Assembly (NCBI GenBank): GCA_030610255.1
Contig: JAUWSB010000003.1
Coordinates: 1 to 33,771, forward strand
DNA: 33,771 nucleotides
Direction of reading: 5' to 3'
DNA from: Bacteroidota bacterium
GTDB lineage: Bacteria > Bacteroidota > Bacteroidia > Bacteroidales > JADFUO01
Shown here: positions 2,469 through 31,601 of the stretch, one piece after another
Layout of the letters: every line of letters begins with the position of its first letter
Numbering within the stretch: the stretch's first letter is position 1
The notes under the pieces: model-generated
Told to the model about the DNA's origin: nothing
Databases searched by the model: none
What the model saw: only the letters and a program-made list of their open reading frames with translations
Position numbers and translations under genes: made by a program

Positions 2469-2481
2469 AATTGATAGTGTA

Positions 2482-6119: not shown

Positions 6120-7478
6120 TCATTTTTGAACATTGCTTGTTTTTGTGAGTTCTGATTCTTTTGGAGCCCCAATGTTGAACAACTGATTTAAAATAATAGC
6201 AAGTACTGTTGAGAGAGTTAGTGAAGACGCAAAAACCGGGCTTAGCCAGGATGGAACATTTGAATAAAGGTCTGGAAGAATGATGGCGCTAAGACCGAAC
6301 ACAAATGAAATTCCGATTATAAATGTTTTTCTTACATTCATTTTGCTGGATACCAATATCTGAATGCCGGAGATTACCATAAAGCAAGTTACAAAAATCA
6401 CGATTGCGCCCATTACGGGGCCGGGCATGATGCTAAAAATAGTTGTAAATTTAGGCATAAAAGCAAGGCAAATAAAAATTCCACCTGCATAATAAGCAAT
6501 TCGCCTGCTAGTTGCAGAAGTGGCTACTGATAAACCCACATTGCTTGCCGAGGTATCGACAGCCATGCCACCCAATAGTCCGCTTAAAGTCACACTGATA
6601 CCATCTGCAAACAATCCATTACCAATGTTTTTCATGTCTGTTTCTTTCCAGTTCTTGTTGTTTATTTTCTGACAAGTAGTCAAATTCCCGAAGGTCTTTA
6701 AACTGGCACATAACGAAACAATCAGGAAAGGAAATACCAGTGTCCAGTCGATTGCAAATTTAAAATGTTCAACACCTTTACCGGGCAATGCAAACCACGA
6801 AGCATCGGCCAATGTATTTAAATCGGATACGGAAAGAACTCCGAATAAATAGGATAATATGTAACCTAAACACATTCCTATAAGCACACAGTAGAGTTTT
6901 AGCTTACCTTTGCTCCATATATTCAATCCAATCATCGTAAACAGGGTAATGCTTGCTATTAGTAGTTTTTTAGTATTGATGGCATCACCGGCATATTCAA
7001 TTCCTACAAATTTTGAAGACCCCAGCGGGATCAATAAGATAGCAACCATCAGAACAACGAGACCTGATATTTCAATTGGAAACAGCTTCTTCAACTTGTG
7101 AACAACTCTTGATAGGATGCACTCAAAAACGCCCGCCAACATGGTCATTCCATGCATCAGCGGTAATCCTCCAAGCCATGCTGCCTGTAATGAAATCGAC
7201 ATATATGAAGGACCACAAAGATTGGGACAAAGATATCCCGAACCAATTATCCCCTTTTTTATTCCCTGAATAATTGTTCCGGTTCCGGCTGCAATCATTG
7301 AGAAACAAACAAAACTCTGCAATACTGCAAAATTTACTCCTATCTCCCTGGCGATAATTACCGGTAAAACAAGTGTACTGAACATTGTGAATACATGCTG
7401 CAAACCAAGTAAAAACGATACAGCAAAAGGGGGTTTGTCGTCAACGCCATAAATGAGATTTTCCGGTTTAGCAATCAT
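6120..7478 (-). CDS. NCS2 family xanthine/uracil-type permease
   Basis: Track ORF 6120..7517; Met14 (7478) is the likelier start because the longer form overlaps the upstream Cache ORF. 'PPFAVSFLLGLQHVFTMFSTLVLPVIIAREIG', 'SGLLGGMAVDTSASNVGLSVATSATSRRIAYYAG', multiple TM helices. Confidence 0.85.
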   Translation of the reverse strand: MIAKPENLIYGVDDKPPFAVSFLLGLQHVFTMFSTLVLPVIIAREIGVNFAVLQSFVCFSMIAAGTGTIIQGIKKGIIGSGYLCPNLCGPSYMSISLQAAWLGGLPLMHGMTMLAGVFECILSRVVHKLKKLFPIEISGLVVLMVAILLIPLGSSKFVGIEYAGDAINTKKLLIASITLFTMIGLNIWSKGKLKLYCVLIGMCLGYILSYLFGVLSVSDLNTLADASWFALPGKGVEHFKFAIDWTLVFPFLIVSLCASLKTFGNLTTCQKINNKNWKETDMKNIGNGLFADGISVTLSGLLGGMAVDTSASNVGLSVATSATSRRIAYYAGGIFICLAFMPKFTTIFSIMPGPVMGAIVIFVTCFMVISGIQILVSSKMNVRKTFIIGISFVFGLSAIILPDLYSNVPSWLSPVFASSLTLSTVLAIILNQLFNIGAPKESELTKTSNVQK

Positions 7479-7494
7479 ATTGAGACAATTAAAT

Positions 7495-8409
7495 TTATTT
7501 CCAGATTGGGTCCACAATAAACAAGCCTGAGCCTACAATTACATTTTCTTTTCCAACTTTAACTTTTCGTATATAAAGTGTCTTTTTTGAAAGTTTTGTT
7601 TGTCCGGGTCGGGGCCATAAATAAAGGAGAAATGCTTTGTTCTTATCTTTGAGCTTATCAATTATCTCTTTTACAACATATTTTCCTATCGCATCCTGAA
7701 AACCAATCAAATTCCTTTCTTTAATACCGGGAAATGCAGGATCAACAATAGCTTTTCCATCAAAGGAGATTACAAACATATAAACATCGGAAAAATAAAA
7801 AATACTGGATTTATCAATAAGTTTTTCATAAGCAGCCTTTCCTTCTTTTTCAATAAGATGTGCTGCGGAATCAACAATATCAACTATAAATTTTCTTTCA
7901 GTTCGAATATCGTAGGTTCCACTTCCTATGGCATACGGTTTCCCCTGCGGATCCTCAACACGAACAATATAGGCACTTTTCCAAAAAGGAAAAATCTCGT
8001 CGCTTTCTGCCCATAAATAATGAACCCAGCCTTTAGGTTTCAGGGTGTCGGAAGCAATGTTAATAATAAAACGAATCACTGGCTTACCATTCATATCGCA
8101 CATATCAATCATGTTTTTACCGACAAACTCTTTCTCAATGGGATGAAAAATACATTTGCCTTCAAGATCATAAATAAAGAGGTACTTGTTTCCTTTAAAC
8201 CATTTGCTTCCCTTATCGCTAAACTTTGCGAAAGACTCTGTTCCTTTTTGTGAAAAAACCTTTGCTGCCGATTCAACAAATTCAATCAGGTTTATGGTTT
8301 CTTCAAACTGATACTCAGATTGTGCTGTTTGAGATGTAGCACTAAAAAAAGAAATGATGAATATAAAAAGAGTTTGTAATGTTATCTTACATTGTATCAT
8401 AATAAACAT
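7495..8409 (-). CDS. Secreted stand-alone protein with two Cache (sCache_2-like) domains
   Basis: 304 aa with signal peptide; two copies of a Cache-like pattern: 'YLFIYDLEGKCIFHPIEKEFVGKNMIDMCDMNGKPVIRFII...GWVHYLW' and 'YMFVISFDGKAIVDPAFPGIKERNLIGFQDAIGKYVVKEII...AFLLYLWPRPGQTKLSKKTLYIRKVKVGKENVIVGSGLF'. No downstream signalling domain. Confidence 0.75.
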   Translation of the reverse strand: MFIMIQCKITLQTLFIFIISFFSATSQTAQSEYQFEETINLIEFVESAAKVFSQKGTESFAKFSDKGSKWFKGNKYLFIYDLEGKCIFHPIEKEFVGKNMIDMCDMNGKPVIRFIINIASDTLKPKGWVHYLWAESDEIFPFWKSAYIVRVEDPQGKPYAIGSGTYDIRTERKFIVDIVDSAAHLIEKEGKAAYEKLIDKSSIFYFSDVYMFVISFDGKAIVDPAFPGIKERNLIGFQDAIGKYVVKEIIDKLKDKNKAFLLYLWPRPGQTKLSKKTLYIRKVKVGKENVIVGSGLFIVDPIWK

Positions 8410-10859: not shown

Positions 10860-13157
10860 TTATCTCATCAGTTGTATCTTTTTTATATCTTCATTATCAG
10901 GGAACTTAACGGTCATTGTTTTAATTAATTTACCGGCTTTTTCTATATAATTATTTTTAATATAAAAGTTAAGAAGGATAGAGTAATTAGTAATGTTCAA
11001 ATTATCTTTATCAATAGCTTTTTTTAAGTATTTTTCAGCATTATCTTTATCTCCAAAAAAATCGTAAAGCATTGCAATATTGTAATCTACCCTTGAATTG
11101 TCAGGCATTTGTTCGCTTGCTCTAATCAAATATTCAAGTGATTTTTTATACTTTTTGTTCTCCGATAATATTAAGCCGTAATTATATAATGAAACAGCAT
11201 CGTCTGGATTTTCTACAATATATTTTTCCAATATTTTCTCAGCTTTTAACGGTTGTCCCATGGCACTATACAAATGAGCCAGATTGATTTTAGCAACAAT
11301 CAATTCATTGTCTTGCTTTATGGCTTTTAAATAATATTTTTCAGCTTTTTCATAGTCTTTTTGCTTATAATAAAAGTTGCCAAGATTATATTTTTCGGTA
11401 GGAAAATCAGAGTTATATTGCAGCATGGCAACATATTCATCAAGCGCTTTTTGATAGGCAGCTTTGTATCTCTGAGGAATTTGTCCGGAACTCAAATTAG
11501 AGAGTTTGTAAGCAGTTTCAATTCTTACTGCTTTTGTTTCATCATAAAGCAGCAATAGTAATTTATCAAAAACTTTTTGTGAATTAATGTCTAATCTTCT
11601 AATTGCAGAAATTCTGATAGAAGGTTCTATGTTTTGTAAAGATTGGTTTATTACTTCATCGTTATTCGATTCAAATCCGGTGTTTAAATAATTAATTGCT
11701 GCACTTCTGATACTTGTAGGATATAACTCGTCTTTAATTATTCTTTTTAATCTGTGATCTGCATTTTTGTCTACATTATTAGCTGCTGAGAATGCTTCTC
11801 CAAATTGATATGGACGACTTGTTCCAAACCATTTTTCAATGTATGATTGTGCCCACTGATTGCTTGAATCTTTGTGGCATTGAATACAAGCATTAGGAGT
11901 TCCGTTTTTGATTGACAAGTCCGGCCGGGGTATTCTAAAACTGTGGTCTCTCCGATAATCAACTCCCATATAATTTTGTCCGTGCATGTGGCAATTGATA
12001 CATAGTGTTCCCGAACCAACTTCAAATTTAATACCTGCATCAGAAATTACAGCTTCACCGCTTTCACCAAAACCTTTATGAAATGTATGTGATTTTGTAT
12101 CGTAATCATCTGCCTTATGGCATTGTAAACAAAGTGCATTATCCTCAAAAAGAAGTTTTCCGGAATGTACGTTATGACAATCGTTACATTTAACATCGTT
12201 CATAAACATTCTGCTATGCGTAAACGATCCATAAACATAATCTTCGTTTTTTATTTGACCATCGATATAATAATTAGGTTCAATGGGCAATAAAGGAATC
12301 ATATGGTTATAAATATTTTTGGTATACGGATTAAAGTCACTCAAAGTGTTTCGTCGGGAATGGCAACGAGCACAATTATCAACATATTGCTTATTGTCTA
12401 TTCCGCTTGTTTGAATAACCAAACCCGTATTCTTGATGTCTTTACGAGCATATTCAGGTAAATCTGCCCAAGCCAAATGCTCTGATGCAGGTCCATGACA
12501 AGCCTCGCAGCTAACATTAATTTCAAACCAGGTAGTATGGTATGTGTCAGTGTGAGGATCATATCCTTTTTTCAAATTTGTTGAATGACAATCGGCACAC
12601 ATTGAATTCCAGTTTTGAGCCTGATTAGTCCAATGCAACCAGTTGGTGTGGTCAACATCTTCGTCCCGATAAACAGCATCCGGCATATAATACCAATTCT
12701 TTTCAATAGTGTTCCATGTTAAAGCTAAGGTTTGTAATCGTCCGCCTTCAAATTCTACTAAATATTGTTGTAGCGGTGAATATCCAAAGACATATTTCAC
12801 CTCGTATTCATGCATTTTACCGTCTTCGCCATCGGTATAAACGAAAAATTTATTGCCTTTTTTGTAGAATTTATGTGTTTGATTATTTCTTATTAAAGTT
12901 GCATTGTTAAAATCACCTAATACAGTGCTGTCGGTAGCATAATCCATAGCTAAATCATGGTCAGAACCTTTCCAATCGTTATATTCGGCCTCATGGCATT
13001 CTATACAAGTATTTCGTCCAACATATTCGGGAGTTTTTTCCGTAATATTGGTTTTGTCCGTAAAATATGCTTGTTTTATAATATAAGCCGGCAATAATAG
13101 CAATATTATAACTGTAATAATGACTCTTACAGTATTGTATTTTTTTTGATCTATCAT
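10860..13157 (-). CDS. Membrane-anchored octaheme cytochrome c (c554-like) with HEAT-like and TPR C-terminal domains
   Basis: 765 aa; N-terminal TM; eight CXXCH motifs (CIECH, CADCH, CEACH, CARCH, CNDCH, CLQCH, CINCH, CIQCH); HEAT-like helices; TPR pattern 'YNLGNFYYKQKDYEKAEKYYLKAIKQD'. Confidence 0.9.
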   Translation of the reverse strand: MIDQKKYNTVRVIITVIILLLLPAYIIKQAYFTDKTNITEKTPEYVGRNTCIECHEAEYNDWKGSDHDLAMDYATDSTVLGDFNNATLIRNNQTHKFYKKGNKFFVYTDGEDGKMHEYEVKYVFGYSPLQQYLVEFEGGRLQTLALTWNTIEKNWYYMPDAVYRDEDVDHTNWLHWTNQAQNWNSMCADCHSTNLKKGYDPHTDTYHTTWFEINVSCEACHGPASEHLAWADLPEYARKDIKNTGLVIQTSGIDNKQYVDNCARCHSRRNTLSDFNPYTKNIYNHMIPLLPIEPNYYIDGQIKNEDYVYGSFTHSRMFMNDVKCNDCHNVHSGKLLFEDNALCLQCHKADDYDTKSHTFHKGFGESGEAVISDAGIKFEVGSGTLCINCHMHGQNYMGVDYRRDHSFRIPRPDLSIKNGTPNACIQCHKDSSNQWAQSYIEKWFGTSRPYQFGEAFSAANNVDKNADHRLKRIIKDELYPTSIRSAAINYLNTGFESNNDEVINQSLQNIEPSIRISAIRRLDINSQKVFDKLLLLLYDETKAVRIETAYKLSNLSSGQIPQRYKAAYQKALDEYVAMLQYNSDFPTEKYNLGNFYYKQKDYEKAEKYYLKAIKQDNELIVAKINLAHLYSAMGQPLKAEKILEKYIVENPDDAVSLYNYGLILSENKKYKKSLEYLIRASEQMPDNSRVDYNIAMLYDFFGDKDNAEKYLKKAIDKDNLNITNYSILLNFYIKNNYIEKAGKLIKTMTVKFPDNEDIKKIQLMR

Positions 13158-13619
13158 TTAAACATAGGTTAACTGAGATTTATCGAATCCCTTTCTTCTG
13201 ATAGGATTATTGATATCAACTAATATCTCACCGTTTTCAAAAGTAATCGAAAAAATATCTAATGCTCTTGTAGCCGGTGGCGATAAGACTTCGCCATGCT
13301 TATCAAATGTAGATGCGTGACAAGGGCAATCAAAGCCTTTGTCGTTAGCTTGAACTATGCATCCTAAATGAGTACATTTTATTGATATTGCCAGCATCCC
13401 TCCATCATCAAATACCGACAAGTAGAATTTACCGGAATTAAATGGATACATTTTATTTTTTTCAAAAGCATTTATTTTTCCTGCTGAAAATAAATCTTTA
13501 TTTTGCTTTTTTGAAGCTTTGTTTTTAAATACATCAAAAATTAAATAAGCAATTTCTAAGCTTATAACAGTTAGAATAGCTTTTTTTATAAAATTTCGTC
13601 TGTTTATTTTCTTTCTCAT
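13158..13619 (-). CDS. Rieske [2Fe-2S] protein with Tat-like N-terminus
   Basis: 153 aa; 'CTHLGC...CPCHAS' cluster motifs; N-terminal 'INRRNFIKKAILTVISLEIAYLIF'. Stop abuts the octaheme start at 13157. Confidence 0.9.
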   Translation of the reverse strand: MRKKINRRNFIKKAILTVISLEIAYLIFDVFKNKASKKQNKDLFSAGKINAFEKNKMYPFNSGKFYLSVFDDGGMLAISIKCTHLGCIVQANDKGFDCPCHASTFDKHGEVLSPPATRALDIFSITFENGEILVDINNPIRRKGFDKSQLTYV

Positions 13620-13630
13620 TTTTTTTAAAA

Positions 13631-13925
13631 TCGTAACTAATCAGTTTATTAATCAATTCCTATTCCCGATAGCTATCGGGATTGAGTATAGATTTTAAAA
13701 ATGGTATCCATACGGATGCCCTTCGGTTATAGGGGGGAGTTAAAGTGAAAAGGCTAAAGGCTAAAGTAAAAAGGCTAAATCCCTATTTACCTTACAACCG
13801 CAGGGCGTCCGTATGGATTTCCCCTATTTCCCCTATTTCCTCTATTTCGCTTATTTCCCTTATTTCCCCTATTTCCCTATTTCCTTATTTCCCTTATTTC
13901 CCGATTTCCCATATTCCCCAGTTAA
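13631..13925. repeat. Composite intergenic repeat element (GTAACTAATCAGTTTATTAAT ... CCCGATAGCTATCGGG ... GGCTAAAGGCTAAAG ... (TATTTCCCC)n)
   Basis: Includes the 16-nt palindrome cccgatagctatcggg (13665-13680), repeated 'aaaaggctaaa', and an approximately 100-nt (tatttccc)n tract. A shorter relative lies at 23665-23785. Confidence 0.8.
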
Positions 13926-13953
13926 GATATTTTCATCGTTAATTTAATACTAA

Positions 13954-15231
13954 TTAGTTACAAAAAGTCAAATTCATAGACTCACCTCTAAACCAAACAC
14001 CAACAATACTCATCATTATATAAGAAGTAAAAATAATAGTCATTATTGCAATGATAATCTCAACTTTATCAGCTTTTAGAATAGCTTTTAAATAAAACAA
14101 GAAGCCCAATGCAGGCACTAAATAAAATAATAAAGGTATAATACCGCTACTTATAAATAAATGAATATTTAGTTGGTTAAATTTAAACCAATATTCGAAA
14201 ATGATGATTAGTGCCGATGTTAAGAGTGTTGAAAAGATAATTGATAAAATAATAATTTCCCCCCCCTTTTGACTGTAAAACCAGGAACCTATTTTTTCTT
14301 TATCAATTTTAATATAGGGAGTGTAAAACAAAAAAGTCATTAAACTTAACGGTATCACAAAAGTTACAAGAATAGGATGTAAATGAATCAATAATTCCTG
14401 AACACCCATAAAATACCATGGTGCTTTACTCGGATTAGGACTTATCAAAGGGTTTGCTTTATCGAGCATAGGTGCATCAAAAAATATTGCAAATAGAATA
14501 ATTAAAGCAATTAAAAATAAGGCAACGATAATTTCTTTTAATATCAAACCGGGATAAACCTTAACCATTTTTTGTTCATTTTTATTGGCAACAGTTACTC
14601 CTTTGGCTTTACGAACCAACCAAAAATGCAAGACCATAAAAAATACAAATAAGATGGGTAATAAAGCTGTATGAAAATTATAAAAATTTAATAGAGTGTT
14701 CTCATTAACTATTTTTCCTCCTCTGATAATGTTAGCTAAATAACTGCCTATTAGCGGAATGTATTCTACAATATTGGTCATTATGGTTACAGCCCAATAA
14801 GATAATTGATCCCATGGCAATAAATATCCGGTAAAATTGAAAAATAATACGAGACCGAATAGAATTAAACCATAGTGCCAATTCTTTTTTCTTTCGTAAA
14901 AAATAGATTGTGAATAGAACACCCTTAATAAATGTAAAAATGCAGTTATTACCATGAGCATTGCACTCCAATGATGAATATTTCTTAAAAGAGAACCAAA
15001 AAGCGTATTATTTTGTAACGATGTGATTGAATCGTAGGCATTTTCAGGTATTGGCACATAGCTAAAACGCAAAAGTAAACCTGTAAAAGCTAAAATTATA
15101 AACAGCAAAGCATTAATACCGCCAAGACCAAATGTTCGAGTGTATTTTAAGGCTTGCTCATTTACGGTTTTTGGGTGTAAATGCAAAAGAAAATTTATGA
15201 ATGAGGAATGTTTGTTTTCTTTAAAACTCAT
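13954..15231 (-). CDS. Cytochrome b (fused b6 / subunit IV-like) of a bc-type complex
   Basis: 425 aa, about 9 TM helices; heme-ligand pairs in 'NIHHWSAMLMVITAFLHLLR' and 'FHTALLPILFVFFMVLHFW'; 'FTGYLLPWDQLSYWAVTI'; C-terminal 'NPSKAPWYFMGVQELL'. Confidence 0.9.
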   Translation of the reverse strand: MSFKENKHSSFINFLLHLHPKTVNEQALKYTRTFGLGGINALLFIILAFTGLLLRFSYVPIPENAYDSITSLQNNTLFGSLLRNIHHWSAMLMVITAFLHLLRVFYSQSIFYERKKNWHYGLILFGLVLFFNFTGYLLPWDQLSYWAVTIMTNIVEYIPLIGSYLANIIRGGKIVNENTLLNFYNFHTALLPILFVFFMVLHFWLVRKAKGVTVANKNEQKMVKVYPGLILKEIIVALFLIALIILFAIFFDAPMLDKANPLISPNPSKAPWYFMGVQELLIHLHPILVTFVIPLSLMTFLFYTPYIKIDKEKIGSWFYSQKGGEIIILSIIFSTLLTSALIIIFEYWFKFNQLNIHLFISSGIIPLLFYLVPALGFLFYLKAILKADKVEIIIAIMTIIFTSYIMMSIVGVWFRGESMNLTFCN

Positions 15232-20477: not shown

Positions 20478-22112
20478 TTATAAACCCATAAACATTTTAA
20501 TATCATCTTCAACTTCACCAATACCGGCTATACCGAATTTATCAATCAAAACTTTTGCTACATTCGGTGATAAAAATGCAGGCAACGTTGGTCCGAGATG
20601 AATATTTTTTACACCAAGATAAAGCAAAGCTAATAAAACAGTTACTGCTTTTTGTTCGTACCACGCGATATTGTAAGCAATCGGTAAATCATTAATATCA
20701 TTAAGCTCAAATACTTCTTTAAGTTTAAGAGCAATAACTGCCAATGAATAAGAATCATTGCATTGTCCTGCATCAAGCACTCTTGGAATTCCATTTATAT
20801 TTCCAAGATTAAGTTTATTGTATCGAAATTTTGCACAACCGGCTGTAAGAATAACCGTATCTTTCGGAAGTTTCTCGGCAAACTCGCTATAATAATTTCT
20901 TGTTTTATGACGACCATCGCAACCTGCCATTACAAAGAATTTTTTAATTGCTCCCGATTTAACTGCATCTACAATTTTATCAGCCAATTGCATAACCTGA
21001 TTGTGAGCAAACCCGCCGATGATTTTTCCTGTTTCAATTTCTACCGGAGCTTCACATTTTTTAGCATGTTCGATAATTTGAGAAAAATCTTTTGCTTTAC
21101 CTTCTTCCCTGTCGGGGATGTGAGTAACACCTTCAAATCCCACGGAACCGGTTGTGTAAACACGGGCTTTATAAGATTCTTTTGGCGGAACAAGACAATT
21201 GGTTGTCATTAAAATCGGCCCGTTGAAAGAATCAAATTCCTTATTTTGCTGCCACCAGGCATTACCGTAGTTTCCAACAAAGTGCTTGTATTTTTTTAAA
21301 GCCGGATAATAATTTGCAGGTAACATTTCCCCGTGAGTATAAACATCAACACCTGTTCCTTCGGTTTGTTTCAGGAGTTCTTCCATATCTTTCAGGTCGT
21401 GTCCGCTGATAAGAATTCCGGGCTTTTTTCCAACACCGATATTTACTTCTGAAATTTCAGGATTACCGTAAGATTCTGTATTTGCTTTGTCTAACAGCGC
21501 CATTGTATCAACAGAATATTTTCCACATTCCAGAACAAGTGCAACAAGTTCATCAACAGAAAGATTGTCGTTTAGAGTTGATGACAAGGCTTTTTTTATG
21601 AATTTATGGATACTCTTATCATTGTATCCGAGAGCCATAGCATGATGAAGATATGCAGCCAAACCTTTCAGTCCGTAAATCAATAATTCTCTTAATGAAC
21701 GTACATCTTCATTTTCTGTAGAAAGAACACCGATTATTTCGGCTTTTTTCTCAAATTCTTCAATTGTGCCGGCTGTCCAGTTTCCTGCATCATGTAATTT
21801 GCAAGCACATTCAGGGTCTTTACATTGAGATTTTACTCTGTCTCTCAACTCCAGACCTTTTTTAATTTTTTCAGCAATTACATATTTGTCAAAATTAACA
21901 TTGGTTATTGATGTAAAAAGAGCATCAACAACAAAATCATTAACTTCGGCATCTTCAATTTCAGCATTTTCGCAACAGATTGAAATACCTTTTGAAGTGT
22001 AAATTAATAAATCAAGCAGATTTGAAACATCTTCGCTTTTGCCGCAAACACCTTTTATTGTACAGCCGGTTCCTTTGGCTGTTTCCTGGCATTGATAACA
22101 AAACATACTCAT
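20478..22112 (-). CDS. hcp: Hybrid cluster protein / hydroxylamine reductase
   Basis: 544 aa; '[23 protein letters not shown]' N-terminal Cys motif; '[39 protein letters not shown]', '[11 protein letters not shown]', '[10 protein letters not shown]', '[18 protein letters not shown]'. Confidence 0.97.
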
Positions 22113-22459: not shown

Positions 22460-23383
22460 TCATATCCATTCTTCTGATATAACTTCTCCTTTAATTCCTA
22501 TTATCATAGCTTTAACCGGTACTTTTCTTTTTGCTTGTGAAGTTGCGGTTTTAACAATTTGTAATAATCCACTGCAACAAGGTACTTCCATCATCATCAC
22601 TGTTATAGTGTTAATTTTTGCATCGTCAATCAGACTTATTATTTTGGCTATATAAGTTTCAATACCGGAATCAAGTTTCGGACAAGCAATTATCAGAGTT
22701 TTTCCCTTCAAGTAATTTTGGTGAAAATCACCCATTGAAAAAGCAACACAATCGGCTGCAAGCAGCAAATCGGAATTTTTAAAATACGAAGTTGCGGGAT
22801 TAATTAAGTGCATTTGAACAGGCCAATGCCTTAGCTCTGATGCAAATATCGGCTGTTCCGTTTTAGGTAAAGCTGCCTTATTCATTTGTTCGATATTAAT
22901 ATTAAAATCAATCGGCATCGAACCCGGACACCCACCGCTACAAGCACTTTCTTCAACCATATTTTCTTCTTTTTTAATTAAATTTTCAGGTTTAATATTA
23001 TTATGAACGTAATACTTCACATTATCGGGATCAAATTCCAATGAATTTCTATTTTGTTCAAGGTACTGGACACCTAGTTGAAGAAATTCCATTTCGTTAT
23101 GCTCTTTTAAATGTTGTAAATGAGCAATTACTACATTCCTGCCCTTTTTAACCATTTCCTTTATTACAGCAATTTCATCATAAGGCTCAGCTTCTCGTTG
23201 TTCAATTGTTATTGCTCCTTGTGGGCAATGTCCGATACAAGCGCCAAGACCATCACACATCAAATCACTTATTAGCCTTGCTTTTTCATCAATTATTTGC
23301 AAAGCTCCTTCGTGACAATTCGGGATACACAGCCCACAACCGTCACATAATTCTTCGTCAATTTTTATAATATCTCGCTTCAT
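22460..23383 (-). CDS. 4Fe-4S binding protein commonly associated with hcp
   Basis: 307 aa; 'CDGCGLCIPNCHEGAL' and degenerate second 'CDGLGACIGHCPQGAI' Fe-S motifs; 'ESACSGGCPGS'. Confidence 0.85.
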   Translation of the reverse strand: MKRDIIKIDEELCDGCGLCIPNCHEGALQIIDEKARLISDLMCDGLGACIGHCPQGAITIEQREAEPYDEIAVIKEMVKKGRNVVIAHLQHLKEHNEMEFLQLGVQYLEQNRNSLEFDPDNVKYYVHNNIKPENLIKKEENMVEESACSGGCPGSMPIDFNINIEQMNKAALPKTEQPIFASELRHWPVQMHLINPATSYFKNSDLLLAADCVAFSMGDFHQNYLKGKTLIIACPKLDSGIETYIAKIISLIDDAKINTITVMMMEVPCCSGLLQIVKTATSQAKRKVPVKAMIIGIKGEVISEEWI

Positions 23384-23437: not shown

Positions 23438-23455
23438 TTGTAACCTATGTTACAA
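23438..23455. promoter_or_regulatory. Crp/Fnr-type operator palindrome TTGTAAC-CTAT-GTTACAA
   Basis: Perfect 7+4+7 palindrome upstream of the start at 23383; near-identical palindrome at 25868-25885 next to the Crp/Fnr gene. Confidence 0.8.
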
Positions 23456-23833: not shown

Positions 23834-25540
23834 TTAGTATAGAAATAATCCTTTCATTTTCTCTTCATCAAATGCTGCTTTTTTGTCAACTATTTTGATA
23901 TATCTTGCAAGTTCGTCCATAATATCTTTTGTCGGAACATGCTCAAAATTTGCTCTGTTTAAAAATAACTCAACTGCTTTGGGCGATTGTCTGAGAATAT
24001 CATACGACATCATTGCTGCTTCTTTTTTATTGTTATTAACCCAATCAATTGCTTTTTTTAATTCACTGATAAATAAATTAGCAATATCAGGATGATTTTT
24101 CAAGAAATCATTTTTAAATATTAAACCGGCATTTGGTAATCGTGTATTTTTCTCATCTATTTGATTCCAAAGTTTTCTGTATGAAAGCGATTCGTGAGCA
24201 GAGGTTCCTGCATTATAAAGAGCAAAACTTGCTTCCGGTTCTCTTAGTAGCACAGTATCGGCTTTACCGCTGATAAAATCGTTTTTAATTTTATCCGGTC
24301 TGCCAAAAGGTTTGTCGTAATGAAAATCAAAATCATCGGGATTATATCCCAATTCTTTCATAATATATTTAGTTACAGCAGTTGGAGGTGCTTCTTTGAA
24401 TAAAGGAGTTTGTATAGTATGACCTTTGATATCTTTAAAGTTGTTAGCTTTATATCCATTTGTAAGCAAATAAAAATTATCCCAGATATCAACAGATACC
24501 ATTTTTATATCAGCACCAACGGCGTAAAGTTTTGTGGCAGCAGCAACAGCAGAAAAGGTAATATCGGCTTTCTTATTAACTATCCATGCCATGTGTTTCT
24601 CTGTTTCTTCCCAAACCTTTAATTCTTTAATGTCAATTTTACTCATCAGCTCGTCCGATTGCAACATTCTCATAATAATCGGATAAGTAATTGGTGTTGC
24701 GGATTGAATAACGAGAGGTATTTTATCTCCTGTAATTTTGATATTATTTTTTGTCGATATTTTATAGAAATAAATTCTGAAATTGTTATTTTCCTTATCC
24801 TCTTCAGTATAATCTTCAAATCCCATTTGGTTGAGCATATTAATAAGAGGCATTGGCTGAAACACTTGTATAAGCACAAAACCTTGTCCGGGTTTAATTG
24901 ATTGGGCATTTTTCATAATTAACTCAAAAGGGTCTTCCGGCATTCCTATAACATTCAATTCGGGAAAGCGGTCCAATTGTTTTTTCCAATCAATTTCAGG
25001 ATTAATTCCTAAATCGTTTTCTGAAGGTAAAATTGTAAGATGAAATTCGTTATCGTTAATTTTTTCGGAATAATATTTATCACCTTTTTCTTCAAACATG
25101 CGTTTTAATGGAAGAGGGTCGAAACTGTTTATAACTGTTAATGCCTGAGCCGGTTTTAATTGTTTTAGTTTTTCAATAATTTTAGGAAAAAAATATCCTT
25201 CTTCATCTCTCACATCATAAATAACAAATTGCTTGATTTCATCGTACCATCCGGGTTTTGTTTCTTGTTGCAAACCATTAGTTTCCTTGATACATTCCGG
25301 GAATATTTTTTCAAGATTTTCTTCTTCGCCAATTGCAGTGTTTACAGTGTGTAATAAGTCGCAAATAGATATTTTTCCGATTTTGGCAACATCATTAAAA
25401 GTAGCCCATCTTGCTACAGTATTAAAGATTAATTTGTTATTAAGCTTTTTAAATTTTGATGAATAACTTATTAATACATCTTTTAGCTCAGGATGTTTTT
25501 CCAAAGCAATTTTTATTTTTGTATCTCCTTTAATTATCAT
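23834..25540 (-). CDS. DUF1858 - DUF2249 - DUF2249 - NMT1/SsuA-like substrate-binding domain fusion, predicted cytoplasmic
   Basis: 568 aa. N-terminus 'MIIKGDTKIKIALEKHPELKDVLISYSSKFKKLNN' (DUF1858-like) without signal peptide; DUF2249-like 'VIYDVRDEEGYFFPKIIEKLKQLKPAQALTVINSFDPLPLKRMFEEKG' and 'GMPEDPFELIMKNAQSIKPGQGFVLIQVFQPMPLINMLNQMGF'; C-terminal 'IPLVIQSATPITYPIIMRMLQ...KADITFSAVAAATKLYAVGADIKMVSVDIWDNFYLLTNG' (NMT1-like). Confidence 0.75.
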   Translation of the reverse strand: MIIKGDTKIKIALEKHPELKDVLISYSSKFKKLNNKLIFNTVARWATFNDVAKIGKISICDLLHTVNTAIGEEENLEKIFPECIKETNGLQQETKPGWYDEIKQFVIYDVRDEEGYFFPKIIEKLKQLKPAQALTVINSFDPLPLKRMFEEKGDKYYSEKINDNEFHLTILPSENDLGINPEIDWKKQLDRFPELNVIGMPEDPFELIMKNAQSIKPGQGFVLIQVFQPMPLINMLNQMGFEDYTEEDKENNNFRIYFYKISTKNNIKITGDKIPLVIQSATPITYPIIMRMLQSDELMSKIDIKELKVWEETEKHMAWIVNKKADITFSAVAAATKLYAVGADIKMVSVDIWDNFYLLTNGYKANNFKDIKGHTIQTPLFKEAPPTAVTKYIMKELGYNPDDFDFHYDKPFGRPDKIKNDFISGKADTVLLREPEASFALYNAGTSAHESLSYRKLWNQIDEKNTRLPNAGLIFKNDFLKNHPDIANLFISELKKAIDWVNNNKKEAAMMSYDILRQSPKAVELFLNRANFEHVPTKDIMDELARYIKIVDKKAAFDEEKMKGLFLY

Positions 25541-25614: not shown

Positions 25615-25803
25615 TTATTCGTGAGATATTGCCTCAACCGGGCAGGATTCTTCACCTTCAAGGGCGCTTTCTTCAAGTTCTGCCGGTATAATGTCCTTAA
25701 TAACATGAGCTTTATCATCGTCTCTCATTTCAAATACTTCAGGGCAAACGCCTTCACATGCCCCGCAACCTATACATAATTCCTGATCTACTATAAATTT
25801 CAT
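25615..25803 (-). CDS. Small ferredoxin (4Fe-4S)
   Basis: 62 aa; 'CIGCGACEGVCPEVFEM...EESCPVEAI'. Confidence 0.9.
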   Translation of the reverse strand: MKFIVDQELCIGCGACEGVCPEVFEMRDDDKAHVIKDIIPAELEESALEGEESCPVEAISHE

Positions 25804-25867: not shown

Positions 25868-25885
25868 ATGTAACATAAGTTACAA
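25868..25885. promoter_or_regulatory. Crp/Fnr-type operator palindrome ATGTAAC-ATAA-GTTACAA in divergent promoter
   Basis: TGTAAC-ATAA-GTTACA is a perfect palindrome between the divergent ferredoxin and crp/fnr genes. Confidence 0.8.
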
Positions 25886-25931: not shown

Positions 25932-26603
25932 ATGTATTCAAAAATCTCAGAAACACCAATCTTTAAAGGAATAAATCCGGGCGAAGTTGTACATATTTTA
26001 AATTTAGTACATCATCAAATAAAGACTTATGATCCTGAAACAATTATTGCATACAGCGGTGATGAATGTATAAATTTATATATTTTAATAGAAGGGAGCG
26101 TAAGGGGCGAAGTTGTTGATCTTAAAGGGAAGGTCATAAAAATTGAAGATATTAATGCCCCTGATACTTTTGCAGAAGCATTTTTGTTTGCTGATGAAAA
26201 TAACTTGCTTGTAAACATTGTAACAAACATAAAAACTAAAATTTTAATTATATATAAAGATGATTTATTACAATTATTCAAATCGAATAAAAAAATATTA
26301 GAAAATTATTTGAATATTACTTCAAACAGATTTGTCCTTGTAACAAAGAAATTAAAATTTTTATCTTTAAAAACCATTAAAGGAAAACTGGCAAACTACA
26401 TTTTAGGTTTAGAAAGAAAAAATAAAGGAAAACAGCACTTTTTAATTGACAAAACCCAGGAACAACTGGCAGAATATTTTGGAGTTACCCGTCCGTCATT
26501 GGCAAGGGCTCTTGGCGAAATGAAAGATGAAGGTTTGATAGAAATTAAAAGGAAAGAAATTAAAATCCTTGATAGAAATAATTTGGTTCGAATGTTAAAA
26601 TAA
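25932..26603 (+). CDS. Crp/Fnr family transcriptional regulator (candidate nitrosative-stress regulator)
   Basis: 223 aa; cNMP-binding-like N-terminus; C-terminal HTH 'DKTQEQLAEYFGVTRPSLARALGEMKDEGLIEIKRKEIKILD'. Confidence 0.9.
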   Translation: MYSKISETPIFKGINPGEVVHILNLVHHQIKTYDPETIIAYSGDECINLYILIEGSVRGEVVDLKGKVIKIEDINAPDTFAEAFLFADENNLLVNIVTNIKTKILIIYKDDLLQLFKSNKKILENYLNITSNRFVLVTKKLKFLSLKTIKGKLANYILGLERKNKGKQHFLIDKTQEQLAEYFGVTRPSLARALGEMKDEGLIEIKRKEIKILDRNNLVRMLK

Positions 26604-26639: not shown

Positions 26640-27416
26640 TTATCCTGCGCCATCAAGCCATACTTTAATTGGAAATACTTTATCCCTGCTTACTATGATT
26701 TCCTTATCAAAATCCCAGTTTAAAATGATTCTTAACCGGCTGTTTGAATAAACTATTACATCTTTGATGGCATTAATATTAATAATAAACGACCTGTTAG
26801 GTCTGAAAAACATTACCGGGTCTAAGCATGATTCCAGTTCTTCCAGCCTGAAATCAACAATATATTTATTTTGCTTGTTTGTTAGCAGGTAAACTGTTCT
26901 TCCTTCTGCATAAAAAAGGGAAATGTTTTCTGTTTTAACTGATTTGATATGGTCACCGACCTTTATCATGAATCGGGTCTTATAGGACTTGTTAAGTTGA
27001 AGCAAAGCTTTGCCAAGTTCCTCGTATTCCAATCGCTGCCTGTTAAAAGGAAGGTTTTCCCTGAGGCTTTTGATTTTTTCCATGCTACGGTAAAAATCAT
27101 CATAAGATAGTGGCTTTAACAGGTAATCAATACTATTAACTTTAAAAGCCCGGATAGCATATTCGTTATAGGCTGTGATAAAAATTACAGGTGTATTAAT
27201 ATCGATTTTGTCAAAAACCTCGAAACTAAGCCCATCCGTTAGCTGGATGTCCATAAACATCAGATCTGGATGATTCTCGGGAATATTAAGGAATTCAACT
27301 GTTTTTTCAATAGTACCGAACTTGCCTGAAATCTCAATCTCCGGATCATAATTTTTTATCATCTGTTCAAGCTTGTCAGCAGCCGGTTTTTCATCTTCAA
27401 CAATAATAACTTTCAT
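26640..27416 (-). CDS. LytTR family response regulator
   Basis: 258 aa; REC 'VIIVEDEKPAADKLEQMI...LMFMDIQLTDG...PVIFITAYNEYAIRAFKVNSIDYLLKPL'; LytTR 'RFMIKVGDHIKSVKTENISLFYAEGRTVYLLT...FFRPNRSFIININAI'. Confidence 0.95.
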   Translation of the reverse strand: MKVIIVEDEKPAADKLEQMIKNYDPEIEISGKFGTIEKTVEFLNIPENHPDLMFMDIQLTDGLSFEVFDKIDINTPVIFITAYNEYAIRAFKVNSIDYLLKPLSYDDFYRSMEKIKSLRENLPFNRQRLEYEELGKALLQLNKSYKTRFMIKVGDHIKSVKTENISLFYAEGRTVYLLTNKQNKYIVDFRLEELESCLDPVMFFRPNRSFIININAIKDVIVYSNSRLRIILNWDFDKEIIVSRDKVFPIKVWLDGAG

Positions 27417-27521
27417 GTTTTAATGGATTAGAGTTTTCAAACTAATAACTGTTTTTTTATCTTTACTTCTCAACCTCACGACCGAAGGAAGTCCGTATGG
27501 AGCCTTTACCTTAAAATTCAA

Positions 27522-28568
27522 CTAATTTTCTTCTTCTATCTCCAACAGAGGTATTTCAAAAAACCGTAATTGTCCTTCTTCCCGAATAATGAATCCGCTA
27601 TGCGAATAATATTCATAAGCCTTTCTGATAAAATCTATACGGTTATTCTTAGTGCTAAAGTCCATAAGATGCTTTTTTAATTTGTAACTTATATTAACTG
27701 AATTTTTGTTATTTTTAATCATTATTTCAAGTGGCAAATTTTTTGTAATGATGTTTTCCGTTGCAGCTTTTTCAAAAATTGCAAGAAAAACTCCCGGCAC
27801 TATGCCCAAATTTAAAATATCGTTATCAATTTGAATATTGCATTTTATTTTTCCGTGAAAACGGATATTTAAAACATTCAACAAGTATTTAACCGACTCA
27901 AGTTCTTCCTTTAGAGTTACTAAATCATTATGTTTATTATCAAGGGTATAACGGTATATTTTTGATAAATCATTGATCAAGTCATCGGCTGACTTTTTAT
28001 CCCTGTATAATTCTGAAATTATCGTTTCAAGACTTTGAAAAAGTAATTCAGGATTTATCTGATTTTTATATGCCTGTAACTCAATTTCAAGATTCTCTCT
28101 TAGCTTTTGTTCTTTCAAAACCCTGTCTTCATTTTTCAGATTCAGTAAAATTATGCTGAAGAAAAAAAGGTTATAGAAAAAAACGGTTAACAGATATAAA
28201 ATGTTAAAAGTAATTAATTCAGTCCTGATAGTGCTGAATCCTTCAATAAAAATGAAATAAAAAAATAATATTAATGAGACAAGAATAACAGATAAAAGGG
28301 AAGTTAAAGTTATTTGGAGAAGAATCCTGATTTTTAAATTTCGTGTAACGGGATATATTTTATTTAATAATACAATGCATAACCGTAGACTTTCTGATAA
28401 AAAAAATGTTAAAACAATAACAAACAATACCTCGCTGCTGAAGAAATTCTTTATGATCATATTAACCGAATCAAAGAACATCAGGATGAGCAAATATATT
28501 AATATCCCATAGAGTATAGGAGTCACAAGCCTAAAAACCACATTGTTATAAAAAAGTTGTCTGTTCAA
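27522..28568 (-). CDS. Degenerate LytS-type (His_kinase family) membrane protein, predicted pseudokinase
   Basis: 348 aa; four TM helices; 'YKNQINPELLFQSLETI' at the position of the usual 'QxxPHFLFNSLN' (H->E); N-box replaced by 'FEKAATENI'; no recognisable 'GIGLxN' G-box. Confidence 0.8.
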   Translation of the reverse strand: MNRQLFYNNVVFRLVTPILYGILIYLLILMFFDSVNMIIKNFFSSEVLFVIVLTFFLSESLRLCIVLLNKIYPVTRNLKIRILLQITLTSLLSVILVSLILFFYFIFIEGFSTIRTELITFNILYLLTVFFYNLFFFSIILLNLKNEDRVLKEQKLRENLEIELQAYKNQINPELLFQSLETIISELYRDKKSADDLINDLSKIYRYTLDNKHNDLVTLKEELESVKYLLNVLNIRFHGKIKCNIQIDNDILNLGIVPGVFLAIFEKAATENIITKNLPLEIMIKNNKNSVNISYKLKKHLMDFSTKNNRIDFIRKAYEYYSHSGFIIREEGQLRFFEIPLLEIEEEN

Positions 28569-29643
28569 TTTTTTCAGTTATTAATGGTAATTTAACGGTA
28601 AAATATTTATTAGCAGATACAAGGATTTCTTTGTCAGTAAAAAAATTATACCTCTTTTTTATATTTTCCAGCCCGATTTTATGAGATGTATTTTTTTTAG
28701 GTCTGTCAACAAGTTTTTGTCCGATTTTTATAAGCTCGGATTTTGGAATATAGTTATTTCTAACCACCAAATATTTTTGGTTCTCGGAAAATATTTCAAT
28801 CAGCATTGGATTATCTTCGGAAATAGCATTGTGCTTCAAAGCATTTTCAACAAGCATTTGCAGGACAAGTGGAGGTATGAATAATTTTTTCTCATAAGGA
28901 GAAATATTAATTTTCAAATCAATATATTCTTCATACTTTATCTTCTGCAATGAATAATAAGTAAAAACAGCATCGAGTTCATCATATAAAAAAACCAGCT
29001 TTTGTTCGTTGGTTTTTAGAATATATTGATACATAATTGCAAGATTTCTGATAAATAATTCAGCAGAGTTAATATCACTGTATATTAATGATGATATGTT
29101 ATTCAATGAATTGAAGAGGTAATGGGGGCTCAACTGGCTCTTCAGGGCATCAAACTGTAGTCGTATTTGTTCTCGTTCGATTTTTATTGATTCAATTCTG
29201 ACAACCGAATACTGATTAAAAGAAAATATGGAAAAATTTATGACCGTGTAAATATAAACAACGGCAAGGGAAATGATTAAAAACTTAATGATAGCATCAC
29301 GGTAAACAAACCAGAAACTACCTCCATCATCCAAAGGTATAGCATGTTTAAAGAAAACCAAACTCAGGATAAAACCCATTACAATAATAATTATCAGACT
29401 GATGCCTGCTTCGGCAAGAAAACGAATAGTTAGACGCTTGTTCCATGATAAATACCTGTTTAACCGGTGGCTAACTAAAAAGATTAATATTCCGGTGATG
29501 TTTGCTGCAACTATGGTAAACAGTAAGCCTGTCCGGTTTTCTGCTGTGTTCGGAACTGTGCCGGCTTCGCTGTAAATAAGATAAACAAATACAGCAACAG
29601 CAAGTATTGTAGATATTATTAAGTTTCTCCAAATCCAGGACAT
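28546..29643 (-). CDS. LytS-type sensor histidine kinase
   Basis: 365 aa; four TM helices; intact 'LKSQLSPHYLFNSLNNISSLIY', N-box 'LQMLVENALKHNA', G-box-like 'KIGLENIKKRY'. Confidence 0.9.
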   Translation of the reverse strand: MSWIWRNLIISTILAVAVFVYLIYSEAGTVPNTAENRTGLLFTIVAANITGILIFLVSHRLNRYLSWNKRLTIRFLAEAGISLIIIIVMGFILSLVFFKHAIPLDDGGSFWFVYRDAIIKFLIISLAVVYIYTVINFSIFSFNQYSVVRIESIKIEREQIRLQFDALKSQLSPHYLFNSLNNISSLIYSDINSAELFIRNLAIMYQYILKTNEQKLVFLYDELDAVFTYYSLQKIKYEEYIDLKINISPYEKKLFIPPLVLQMLVENALKHNAISEDNPMLIEIFSENQKYLVVRNNYIPKSELIKIGQKLVDRPKKNTSHKIGLENIKKRYNFFTDKEILVSANKYFTVKLPLITEKIEQTTFL

Positions 29644-29906: not shown

Positions 29907-31601
29907 TTAATCAATTGCTTCAATAACTCTTCTGTAATCAGTGTTGGATGTCAGGCTTCCGGCTGTTGTTTTATAGAGTTTACGGATTTCAGGGTCTTTG
30001 ATAAATTTCGTATGACTAAGTTTTATCATAACAGAAGATTTTTCTGTATTTGATGACATTTTTTTAATGCTTTCAAGTATTTTATAACATATAAATTTAT
30101 TCAGATGCTCGTTAGTTATCACTTCTCTTAAAACACGTCCATGCTCAGTATTGCTTGAAAAACTGTTAGCAGCATTGAAAAATGCATCAATAACGGATTC
30201 ATTATCATAAGGCATAAACTCGCTTGCTGAGATCATTACAGATGCCATTTCAGTATTGGATGAAAGCCTTCCTGTTTCGTTTAATAATTGAATCCATGAT
30301 TTATCATTAAGATCATACGTTTTAATTGTGTATCGCAAAACGCTTCCGGCTTCTGTATTACTCGTCATACTTCTGATAGCAATGAAATAAGCTTCATTTA
30401 CATCTTGGTTTTTAAGGTTAATGGAAACAATCGTTCTTAAAATGCTGCCTATTTCTGTATTAGAAGTCAGTTTTTTTACACTTCTTAATAAATTCACATA
30501 ATTCTCATCAGTCAAATCGCCTTTCTTTATCAGGTGGCGGAGTGTACTGCCTGCTTCTGTATTGCTTGTCATCCCATCAATGGCATTGAAGTAAGCCACA
30601 TTAACCGGGGAATTATTTATATCAAGCTTGTCAAGCGACCTCATAACAGAACCCATCTCGGTATTTGAACTAAATTTCTTTACACTCATAAGCAATCTAG
30701 CATAAGCCTGGTTGTTTAATTTCTGGGTCTTTTCCAGATTTCTTAGTACACTTCCGCGTTCCGTATTGCTCGTCATTTTATCTACACAGGCAAAATAAGC
30801 TTCTGTTACCTTTGGATCTTCAAAATCGATTTTTGTTGAAATATTTTTTAAAATTGAGCCTCTTTCCGTATTTGAAGATAATTTTGAAATGCTTTGAAAA
30901 TAGACTACTGCAGTTGTGTTGTTTTTCATGAATAGATCAGAGTATTTACGGAACAACCTGCCACGTTCTGTATTAGAGCTAATCTCACTTGCAATTGTTG
31001 AGCAAGCAGAAACTAATTCATTATCATTTAAACTAATATTTTCCAGTAATGCTTCAAAATATTTTGCCATCACTGAATTAGAAGGTATCTCGTGAATTTC
31101 CTCAATAAAACCATCAATACCTTTTTGCCTGTAAATCCGTTTTGTCCTGCCTACTGCGTCAATACCAGTGATATGGATAACCTCAAGTAATACATCAGCA
31201 AGCCATTTCCTGCCATCCGGCTCAAAGGGAATTTCCTTTCTGCCTTCATAATATTCGTAGCTCAGTTCCCCATTCGAATTACTTTCAATAATAATAGTCC
31301 TTTTATTTCCGAATGTTCTTTTGCTGATTTTGATATACCCGCCCGGTGAAATACTCTTGATACCAGTGTCGTCATCATTTACACTAATATCGCCTTTAAC
31401 CTGGATATCAAAAGAGGAGAAAACATTGGAATATCTATATTGCTTTTTACCATCCTGATATTTTTGAAAATAAATTTCATATGAGGAATTGCTGCTATCT
31501 GAATTTTGTCGGTCTGCAAAAACATTTGTAATCAATAAAGTGTTTATCAGAATTAAACACGAAAATATTGAAGCTGTGGATTTAAATTTCATTGCTTTCA
31601 T
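29907..31601 (-). CDS. Exported protein with 11 'SNTE' helical (HEAT-like) repeats
   Basis: 564 aa; signal peptide; eleven copies of [ST]SNT[ED]xxxxVh spaced about 34-40 aa, with a two-repeat superperiod. Confidence 0.8.
   Translation of the reverse strand: MKAMKFKSTASIFSCLILINTLLITNVFADRQNSDSSNSSYEIYFQKYQDGKKQYRYSNVFSSFDIQVKGDISVNDDDTGIKSISPGGYIKISKRTFGNKRTIIIESNSNGELSYEYYEGRKEIPFEPDGRKWLADVLLEVIHITGIDAVGRTKRIYRQKGIDGFIEEIHEIPSNSVMAKYFEALLENISLNDNELVSACSTIASEISSNTERGRLFRKYSDLFMKNNTTAVVYFQSISKLSSNTERGSILKNISTKIDFEDPKVTEAYFACVDKMTSNTERGSVLRNLEKTQKLNNQAYARLLMSVKKFSSNTEMGSVMRSLDKLDINNSPVNVAYFNAIDGMTSNTEAGSTLRHLIKKGDLTDENYVNLLRSVKKLTSNTEIGSILRTIVSINLKNQDVNEAYFIAIRSMTSNTEAGSVLRYTIKTYDLNDKSWIQLLNETGRLSSNTEMASVMISASEFMPYDNESVIDAFFNAANSFSSNTEHGRVLREVITNEHLNKFICYKILESIKKMSSNTEKSSVMIKLSHTKFIKDPEIRKLYKTTAGSLTSNTDYRRVIEAID

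What the first reader, a model, noticed from the sequence alone, without database searches (positions are those of the whole stretch)
23834..25540. Cytoplasmic fusion of DUF1858 and two DUF2249 domains to an NMT1-type substrate-binding domain
The C-terminal half reads like an ABC-transporter periplasmic solute-binding protein, but the ORF starts with a DUF1858-like domain and has no signal peptide or TM segment. No permease or ATPase gene is nearby. It sits in an apparent operon with a ferredoxin under a Crp/Fnr-type operator. DUF1858 and DUF2249 are often found near nitrogen-oxide metabolism genes. Inference: an intracellular ligand sensor or carrier rather than a transporter component.
Basis: partly seen in the sequence, partly recalled or inferred. 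Interest (0 to 1): 0.62.

Follow-up and report, generated by a model that had tools for sequence, protein, structure and literature searches.

The report
Ferredoxin-linked cytoplasmic nitrosative-stress fusion protein
A protein that looks like half of a nutrient importer has been rebuilt into an internal, ferredoxin-partnered protein that shares its predicted control with a nitric-oxide defence enzyme; the same multi-domain design recurs in at least five bacterial phyla and appears undescribed.

Summary
ORF 23834-25540(-), 568 aa, is DUF1858 + DUF2249 + DUF2249 + an NMT1-type substrate-binding (SBP) domain. It has no signal peptide (an in-frame stop lies just upstream), no TM segment and no ABC partner on the contig. 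It is a conserved family: full-length relatives occur in Bacteroidota, Neomarinimicrobiota, Cloacimonadota, Calditrichota and Aminicenantes. A sister clade of 16 carries a [4Fe-4S] ferredoxin fused in frame at the N-terminus; in the window the same kind of ferredoxin is the next gene upstream. The operator is the published HcpR2 consensus. Exact copies occur only twice in the 2.3-Mb genome, before this operon and before the ferredoxin-hcp pair. Two relatives sit beside a quinol-type NO reductase. The N-terminal half is the architecture of DrpB, a proposed nitrate-sensing protein of Thermus, but SBP-fused members all have Cys60, His64 and Cys83, absent from ten stand-alone DrpB-like proteins. 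The SBP domain has its own invariant motifs, unlike its transporter relatives. Best reading: a cytoplasmic, ferredoxin-coupled accessory protein of nitrosative-stress defence with a repurposed ligand-binding domain. Ligand and chemistry are unknown. 'Not a transporter part' is well supported; 'sensor' versus 'redox enzyme' is open.

The parts
23834..25540 (-). 568-aa DUF1858-DUF2249-DUF2249-SBP fusion protein
   Evidence: conserved family
25355..25534 (-). DUF1858 domain (residues 3-62)
   Evidence: Pfam 2.5e-13; 47.2 bits in the genome search
25361..25363 (-). Cys60 codon (with His64 four residues on): present in 32/32 fusion members, absent in 10/10 stand-alone DrpB-like proteins
25292..25294 (-). 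Cys83 codon: present in 32/32 fusion members; Cys60 and Cys83 are the only cysteines in the protein
25028..25231 (-). DUF2249 domain 1 (about residues 104-171), TusA/SirA-like fold without the CPxP cysteine
24761..24961 (-). DUF2249 domain 2 (about residues 194-260)
   Evidence: residues 201-259
23846..24724 (-). class II substrate-binding-protein domain (about residues 273-565)
   Evidence: Pfam NMT1; Foldseek; invariant residues
24296..24310 (-). PFGRP motif (residues 411-415): invariant in the family, aligned mostly to gaps in transport SBPs
25615..25803 (-). 62-aa single-cluster [4Fe-4S] ferredoxin, first gene of the apparent operon; its homologue is fused to the protein in a sister clade
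25869..25884 (.). HcpR2-type operator TGTAACATAAGTTACA, 65-66 bp before the ferredoxin start, between the operon and the divergent regulator
25932..26603 (+). Crp/Fnr-family regulator, HcpR2-like by its recognition helix (TRPS: Arg180, Pro181 in CRP numbering)
23439..23454 (.). second HcpR2-type operator TGTAACCTATGTTACA, 55-56 bp before the 307-aa ferredoxin gene
22460..23383 (-). 307-aa protein with an N-terminal 2x[4Fe-4S] ferredoxin domain, second HcpR2-type unit
20478..22112 (-). hcp, hybrid cluster protein / hydroxylamine reductase
   Evidence: NF003658, 870 bits

Best explanation
The protein is a cytoplasmic, ferredoxin-coupled accessory protein of nitrosative-stress (NO / nitrogen oxide) defence. 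Shown by sequence: an HcpR2-type operator precedes the ferredoxin-fusion operon and a second copy precedes the ferredoxin-hcp unit; ferredoxin and fusion protein belong together (adjacent genes here, one polypeptide in a sister clade); the SBP domain is a divergent intracellular subfamily with its own invariant motifs. Inferred: the ferredoxin feeds electrons to the DrpB-like half, probably at a Cys60/His64/Cys83 site. The SBP domain binds a small polar or charged ligand made or released under NO stress and either presents it to that redox site or gates the redox event. The outcome supports Hcp- or qNOR-based detoxification or repair of NO damage.
For: Operator equal to the published HcpR2 consensus GTAACnnnnGTTAC (Rodionov 2005, PMC1274295), exact only twice in the 2.32-Mb genome against 0 for the reversed-pattern control, both in this locus. 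Spacing of 65-68 bp to the ferredoxin start is kept in relatives. The regulator has Arg180/Pro181 as HcpR2 should. Ferredoxin fused in frame in 16 relatives, all four cluster cysteines kept, one tree split 100/100. Next to qNOR in L040 and L108 (PF22085 hit in L040; 82% identical protein in L108) and to hcp in the window, L002-L005 and L121. In Neomarinimicrobiota/Cloacimonadota the neighbours include a thioredoxin-reductase-like flavoprotein and thioredoxins, another electron-donor setting. Cys60, His64, Cys83 in 32/32 fusion members and 0/10 stand-alone DrpB-like proteins. Invariant Q279-P283, W310-H316, WDN 353-355, FGRP, REPE and PNAG, mostly different in 17 transport SBPs. In C. difficile the HcpR targets frdX (ferredoxin-like) and hcp are both NO-induced and both needed for NO resistance (PMC12915319).
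Against: No ligand, electron transfer or phenotype is shown. Cys83 lies in a low-confidence linker (pLDDT below 50), so a Cys60-Cys83 pair is not structurally supported. Aminicenantes and three Calditrichota-phylum members have neither ferredoxin nor thioredoxin gene adjacent. The ferredoxin-fused form never co-occurs with hcp in the order sampled (0/12), so the protein is not simply an Hcp partner. Several ferredoxin-fused loci have uninformative neighbours (L110, L111, L113-L115, L122, L123).
Confidence: 0.6

Rival explanations
1. It is an intracellular sensor of nitrate, nitrite or another nitrogen oxide: the SBP domain binds the ligand and the DrpB-like half passes the signal to a regulator, as proposed for DrpA/DrpB in Thermus and resembling the cytosolic SBP-like regulatory domains of NrtC/CmpC.
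For: The N-terminal half has the DrpB architecture, and drpAB deletion makes nar expression nitrate-independent in Thermus (PMC6282519). The CmpC regulatory domain, one entry solved with nitrate present, is among the Foldseek matches (9uak, 9uai). The operon is divergent to a Crp/Fnr regulator gene.
Against: It does not explain the ferredoxin partner or the Cys60/His64/Cys83 signature that stand-alone DrpB-like proteins lack. No Pfam match to the NrtA-type family NMT1_2 was reported at E up to 1. No nar genes are in the window.
Confidence: 0.22
2. The SBP-like domain is an enzyme, as in the cytoplasmic SBP-fold proteins Thi5 (pyrimidine synthase) and MqnA, and the ferredoxin supplies electrons for its reaction.
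For: Thi5 and the DUF178-type structure 2nxo are among the Foldseek matches. The domain carries invariant Lys, His, Arg, Glu and Asp residues as an active site might.
Against: There is no cysteine in the SBP domain, so the cysteine-rich iron motif of Thi5 (recalled, not fetched) cannot be present. No thiamine or menaquinone genes were noticed next to the gene. No catalytic precedent matches the invariant set.
Confidence: 0.13
3. It is a component of an ABC importer whose permease and ATPase lie elsewhere.
For: Sequence relatives are SBPs of ABC operons, some of them linked to nitrosative stress (beside NnrS in Arcobacter and Sulfurimonas; beside hcp in Paraclostridium).
Against: No signal peptide in this protein; no ABC genes in the window; no further exact operator copies in the genome; an N-terminal ferredoxin/DUF1858/DUF2249 part is hard to reconcile with lipoprotein export.
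Confidence: 0.03

Closest known systems
DrpB of Thermus thermophilus (DUF1858-DUF2249-DUF2249; proposed nitrate-sensing system DrpAB, PMC6282519)
   Same: Same N-terminal three-domain order; about 25% identity over residues 2-260; nitrogen-oxide context.
   Different: DrpB ends after the second DUF2249, has no Cys60/His64/Cys83, no ferredoxin gene next to it, and lies downstream of nar.
NMT1/SsuA-type substrate-binding proteins of ABC transporters (PF09084, TIGR01728; 3hn0)
   Same: Class II SBP fold and weak sequence similarity.
   Different: No signal peptide, permease or ATPase; different invariant motifs; an extra FGR in the PFGRP loop.
HcpR2 regulon (hcp and ferredoxin genes under an FNR-like regulator; Rodionov 2005, PMC1274295)
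   Same: Operator consensus, Arg180/Pro181 recognition residues, hcp and ferredoxin targets.
   Different: Rodionov reports that predicted HcpR2 regulons of most Bacteroides contain only hcp; here the regulon includes the fusion operon. No Met or His between residues 29 and 168 of the regulator, so the Met68 heme ligand of P. gingivalis HcpR is not evident.
NrtC/CmpC C-terminal regulatory domains (cytosolic SBP-like domains; 9uak, 9uai)
   Same: A precedent for an SBP fold working in the cytosol as a sensor; Foldseek match.
   Different: Fused to an ABC ATPase there (from general knowledge); here fused to DrpB-like domains and a ferredoxin.

Membership tests
ABC-transporter substrate-binding protein (NMT1/SsuA type) | class II SBP fold / Pfam NMT1 above gathering score | tested here: met
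   24.5 bits against 20.5; Foldseek 3hn0 E 6e-15
ABC-transporter substrate-binding protein (NMT1/SsuA type) | export signal or lipobox | tested here: not met
   stop codon four codons upstream of the ATG, no hydrophobic N-terminus; 17 transport SBPs scored alongside do have one
ABC-transporter substrate-binding protein (NMT1/SsuA type) | permease/ATPase in the operon or regulon | tested here: not met
DrpB | DUF1858-DUF2249-DUF2249 order | tested here: met
DrpB | location downstream of the nar nitrate reductase operon | tested here: not met
   no nar genes in the window; hcp, ferredoxin and regulator instead
DrpB | needed for nitrate-dependent expression | not testable with these tools
   needs genetics
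HcpR2 regulon | operator GTAACnnnnGTTAC upstream | tested here: met
   two exact copies in the genome, both here
HcpR2 regulon | regulator with Pro at position 181 of the recognition helix | tested here: met
   helix reads TRPS
HcpR2 regulon | heme-dependent NO sensing by the regulator | tested here: inconclusive
   no Met/His at residues 29-168, so a Met68 equivalent is not evident; other ligation not excluded
TusA/SirA sulfur carrier (for the DUF2249 domains) | CPxP cysteine | tested here: not met
   only two Cys in the protein, Cys60 and Cys83, both outside DUF2249
Thi5 pyrimidine synthase | cysteine-rich iron-binding motif in the SBP fold (recalled) | tested here: not met
   no Cys in residues 84-568
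single-cluster [4Fe-4S] ferredoxin (partner domain) | CxxCxxC...CP cluster motif | tested here: met
   kept in the separate ferredoxin and in all 16 fused domains

The most novel reading that the evidence does not exclude
A new class of ferredoxin-dependent cytoplasmic redox protein for nitrosative stress, in which a former nutrient-binding domain captures an NO-derived or NO-released metabolite and a Cys60/His64/Cys83 centre on a DrpB-like scaffold reduces or transfers it; in hcp-lacking lineages the ferredoxin-fused form may carry out part of Hcp's job.
Probability: 0.25. Interest if true: 0.82.

Novelty: new variant of a known kind. Interest (0 to 1): 0.62.

Why it matters
DUF1858 and DUF2249 recur in denitrification and NO regulons with no known biochemistry. 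The fusion supplies what stand-alone DrpB lacks: a built-in ligand pocket, a built-in electron donor and a family-specific Cys/His site, so the question 'sense or react, and with what' can be tested in one soluble polypeptide. It is also a clear case of a transporter-type binding protein moved into the cytoplasm, and it extends the HcpR2 regulon of Bacteroidota beyond hcp.

Tried and rejected
Transporter component: rejected (no export signal, no ABC genes, N-terminal ferredoxin in relatives). Chance fusion or MAG artefact: rejected (same architecture in genomes of several phyla). TusA-like persulfide carrier: rejected for lack of the CPxP cysteine. Thi5-like enzyme: no cysteine in the SBP domain. 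Extending the regulon with one mismatch: 12 sites against 8 for the reversed-pattern control in G000, so uninformative. A blanket association of the family with hcp or qNOR: not significant when pooled (11/16 against 109/182, p 0.60); the signal is clade-specific. I first labelled the L108, L120 and L004 hemerythrin-PAS proteins 'DUF438'; in L108 and L004 Pfam shows only Hemerythrin and PAS domains, so that label is dropped. Foldseek of the N-terminal half gave mostly low-quality matches; only the single-domain SirA/TusA-like match is used. A literature search for DUF2249 with NMT1 found no paper.

Full report
OBSERVATION. The ORF at 23834-25540 on the minus strand is real and its domains are confirmed by Pfam: DUF1858 (2.5e-13), two DUF2249 (2.8e-19) and NMT1 (2.9e-5, above the gathering score). 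Its N-terminus looks cytoplasmic: an in-frame stop lies four sense codons upstream of the ATG, and there is no hydrophobic N-terminus or TM segment. An AlphaFold model (pLDDT 75.7) places the C-terminal half among class II substrate-binding proteins (3hn0, E 6e-15). A separate model of the N-terminal half gives one good single-domain match for DUF2249, the SirA/TusA-like 3hz7 (TM 0.73, probability 0.98, E 0.18).

FAMILY. The same four-domain architecture occurs at 46-92% identity in Bacteroidota, Neomarinimicrobiota, Cloacimonadota, Calditrichota and Aminicenantes; a shorter DUF2249-SBP form occurs in Vulcanibacillus. Genome searches found it in 16 of 198 genomes of the window's order, in 9 of 82 of the Calditrichota phylum (some partial), and in 4 of 118 and 3 of 25 in two other phyla. 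A tree of 32 full-length members splits into two groups of 16 with full support (100/100). One group carries a [4Fe-4S] ferredoxin fused in frame at the N-terminus; the other, which holds the window protein, does not. In the window and its close relatives a 62-aa ferredoxin is the gene immediately upstream, and all four cluster cysteines are kept in the separate and the fused versions. The ferredoxin and the fusion protein therefore very probably work together. In Neomarinimicrobiota and Cloacimonadota the neighbours include a thioredoxin-reductase-like flavoprotein and thioredoxins.

WHAT SETS IT APART. The protein has only two cysteines, Cys60 and Cys83. Both, with His64, are present in all 32 DUF1858-bearing members and absent from ten stand-alone DrpB-like proteins, Thermus DrpB included. 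The SBP domain keeps motifs (QSATP, W-x2-TEKH, WDN, FGRP, REPE, PNAG) in all or nearly all of 33 sequences; most are different or missing in 17 transport SBPs, which carry hydrophobic N-termini and mostly sit in ABC operons. The DUF2249 domains lack the CPxP cysteine of sulfur carriers. That these motifs line a pocket is inferred from the SBP fold; model coordinates could not be inspected.

REGULATION AND CONTEXT. It matches the HcpR2 consensus GTAACnnnnGTTAC of Rodionov et al. 2005 (PMC1274295). A scan of the whole 2.32-Mb genome (77% complete) finds two exact copies and none of the reversed control: this one and one 55-56 bp before the 307-aa ferredoxin gene that precedes hcp. The spacing is conserved in relatives, and the same site precedes a ferredoxin in a Paraclostridium plasmid that also carries hcp and an SBP transporter. 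The divergent regulator has Arg180 and Pro181 in its recognition helix as HcpR2 proteins do. It shows no Met or His at residues 29-168, so heme sensing as in P. gingivalis HcpR (PMC12750200) is not established. In two relatives the fusion gene sits beside, or one gene from, a quinol-type NO reductase with an Rrf2-type regulator. In the order sampled, the ferredoxin-fused form never co-occurs with hcp (0/12, p 0.0006) and is enriched with qNOR (7/12, p 0.006), while the unfused form always has hcp (4/4, p 0.04); pooled, there is no association. Relatedness among genomes was not corrected for, although the 12 genomes come from ten families.

MECHANISM. Shown by sequence: no export signal, HcpR2-type operator, ferredoxin-paired, divergent SBP subfamily. 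Inferred: electrons pass from the ferredoxin to the DrpB-like half at Cys60/His64/Cys83, and the SBP domain binds a small polar ligand linked to NO damage or detoxification. In C. difficile both HcpR targets, hcp and the ferredoxin-like frdX, are NO-induced, and knock-down of either gives NO sensitivity (PMC12915319), which makes a ferredoxin-dependent partner plausible. The main rival is a nitrogen-oxide sensor in the manner of DrpAB (PMC6282519), with the cytosolic CmpC/NrtC domain as structural precedent. The Cys/His signature and the ferredoxin partner tilt the balance to a redox role, without deciding it.

NOVELTY. DrpB, SBPs, ferredoxins and the HcpR2 regulon are known. The combined architecture, its clade with fused ferredoxin and its Cys/His signature were not found in the literature searched, which is limited to open-licence PubMed Central papers. 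It is filed as a new variant of a known kind.

Noticed in passing
L131:1587-3016 (same-genus genome G590, C92): A second HcpR2-type operon in a same-genus genome: divergent Crp/Fnr gene, exact operator, then a 232-aa DUF2249 protein whose C-terminal part looks AhpD/carboxymuconolactone-decarboxylase-like (by eye, no Pfam match), then a second hcp.
   Followed up: partly
L038:3803-10052; L037:1773-6870: Uncharacterised ABC importer clusters on Arcobacter and Sulfurimonas plasmids pairing an SBP related to this protein with permease, ATPase and NnrS (in Arcobacter also a TonB receptor and a Crp/Fnr gene): a candidate NO-linked uptake system.
   Followed up: partly
L041, L044-L048 (stand-alone DrpB-like genes): In other Bacteroidota, DrpB-like genes without the SBP sit in a recurring cluster with a COX1/NnrS-like membrane protein, a DUF59-type protein and, in several loci, ScdA/RIC-hemerythrin, Crp/Fnr or Rrf2 genes.
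   Followed up: partly
window 22460-23383 and L043:2180-3016: The 307-aa protein has two 4Fe-4S motifs and an unassigned C-terminal part; a homologue lies near DUF1858-DUF2249 and hemerythrin-type genes in another Bacteroidota genome.
   Followed up: partly
window 10860-15231: Compact respiratory gene cluster: cytochrome b, Rieske protein and a multiheme cytochrome c fused to TPR repeats.
   Followed up: no
window 981-3861: Two tandem lipoprotein-like DUF1254/DUF1214 proteins.
   Followed up: no
window 6120-8409: Xanthine/uracil-type permease overlapping the end of a Cache-domain gene.
   Followed up: no
window 26640-29643: LytTR response regulator and two overlapping LytS-type histidine kinase genes, one with a TTG start.
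   Followed up: no
window 29907-31601: 564-aa probably exported protein with many 'SSNTE' repeat motifs and no Pfam match.
   Followed up: no
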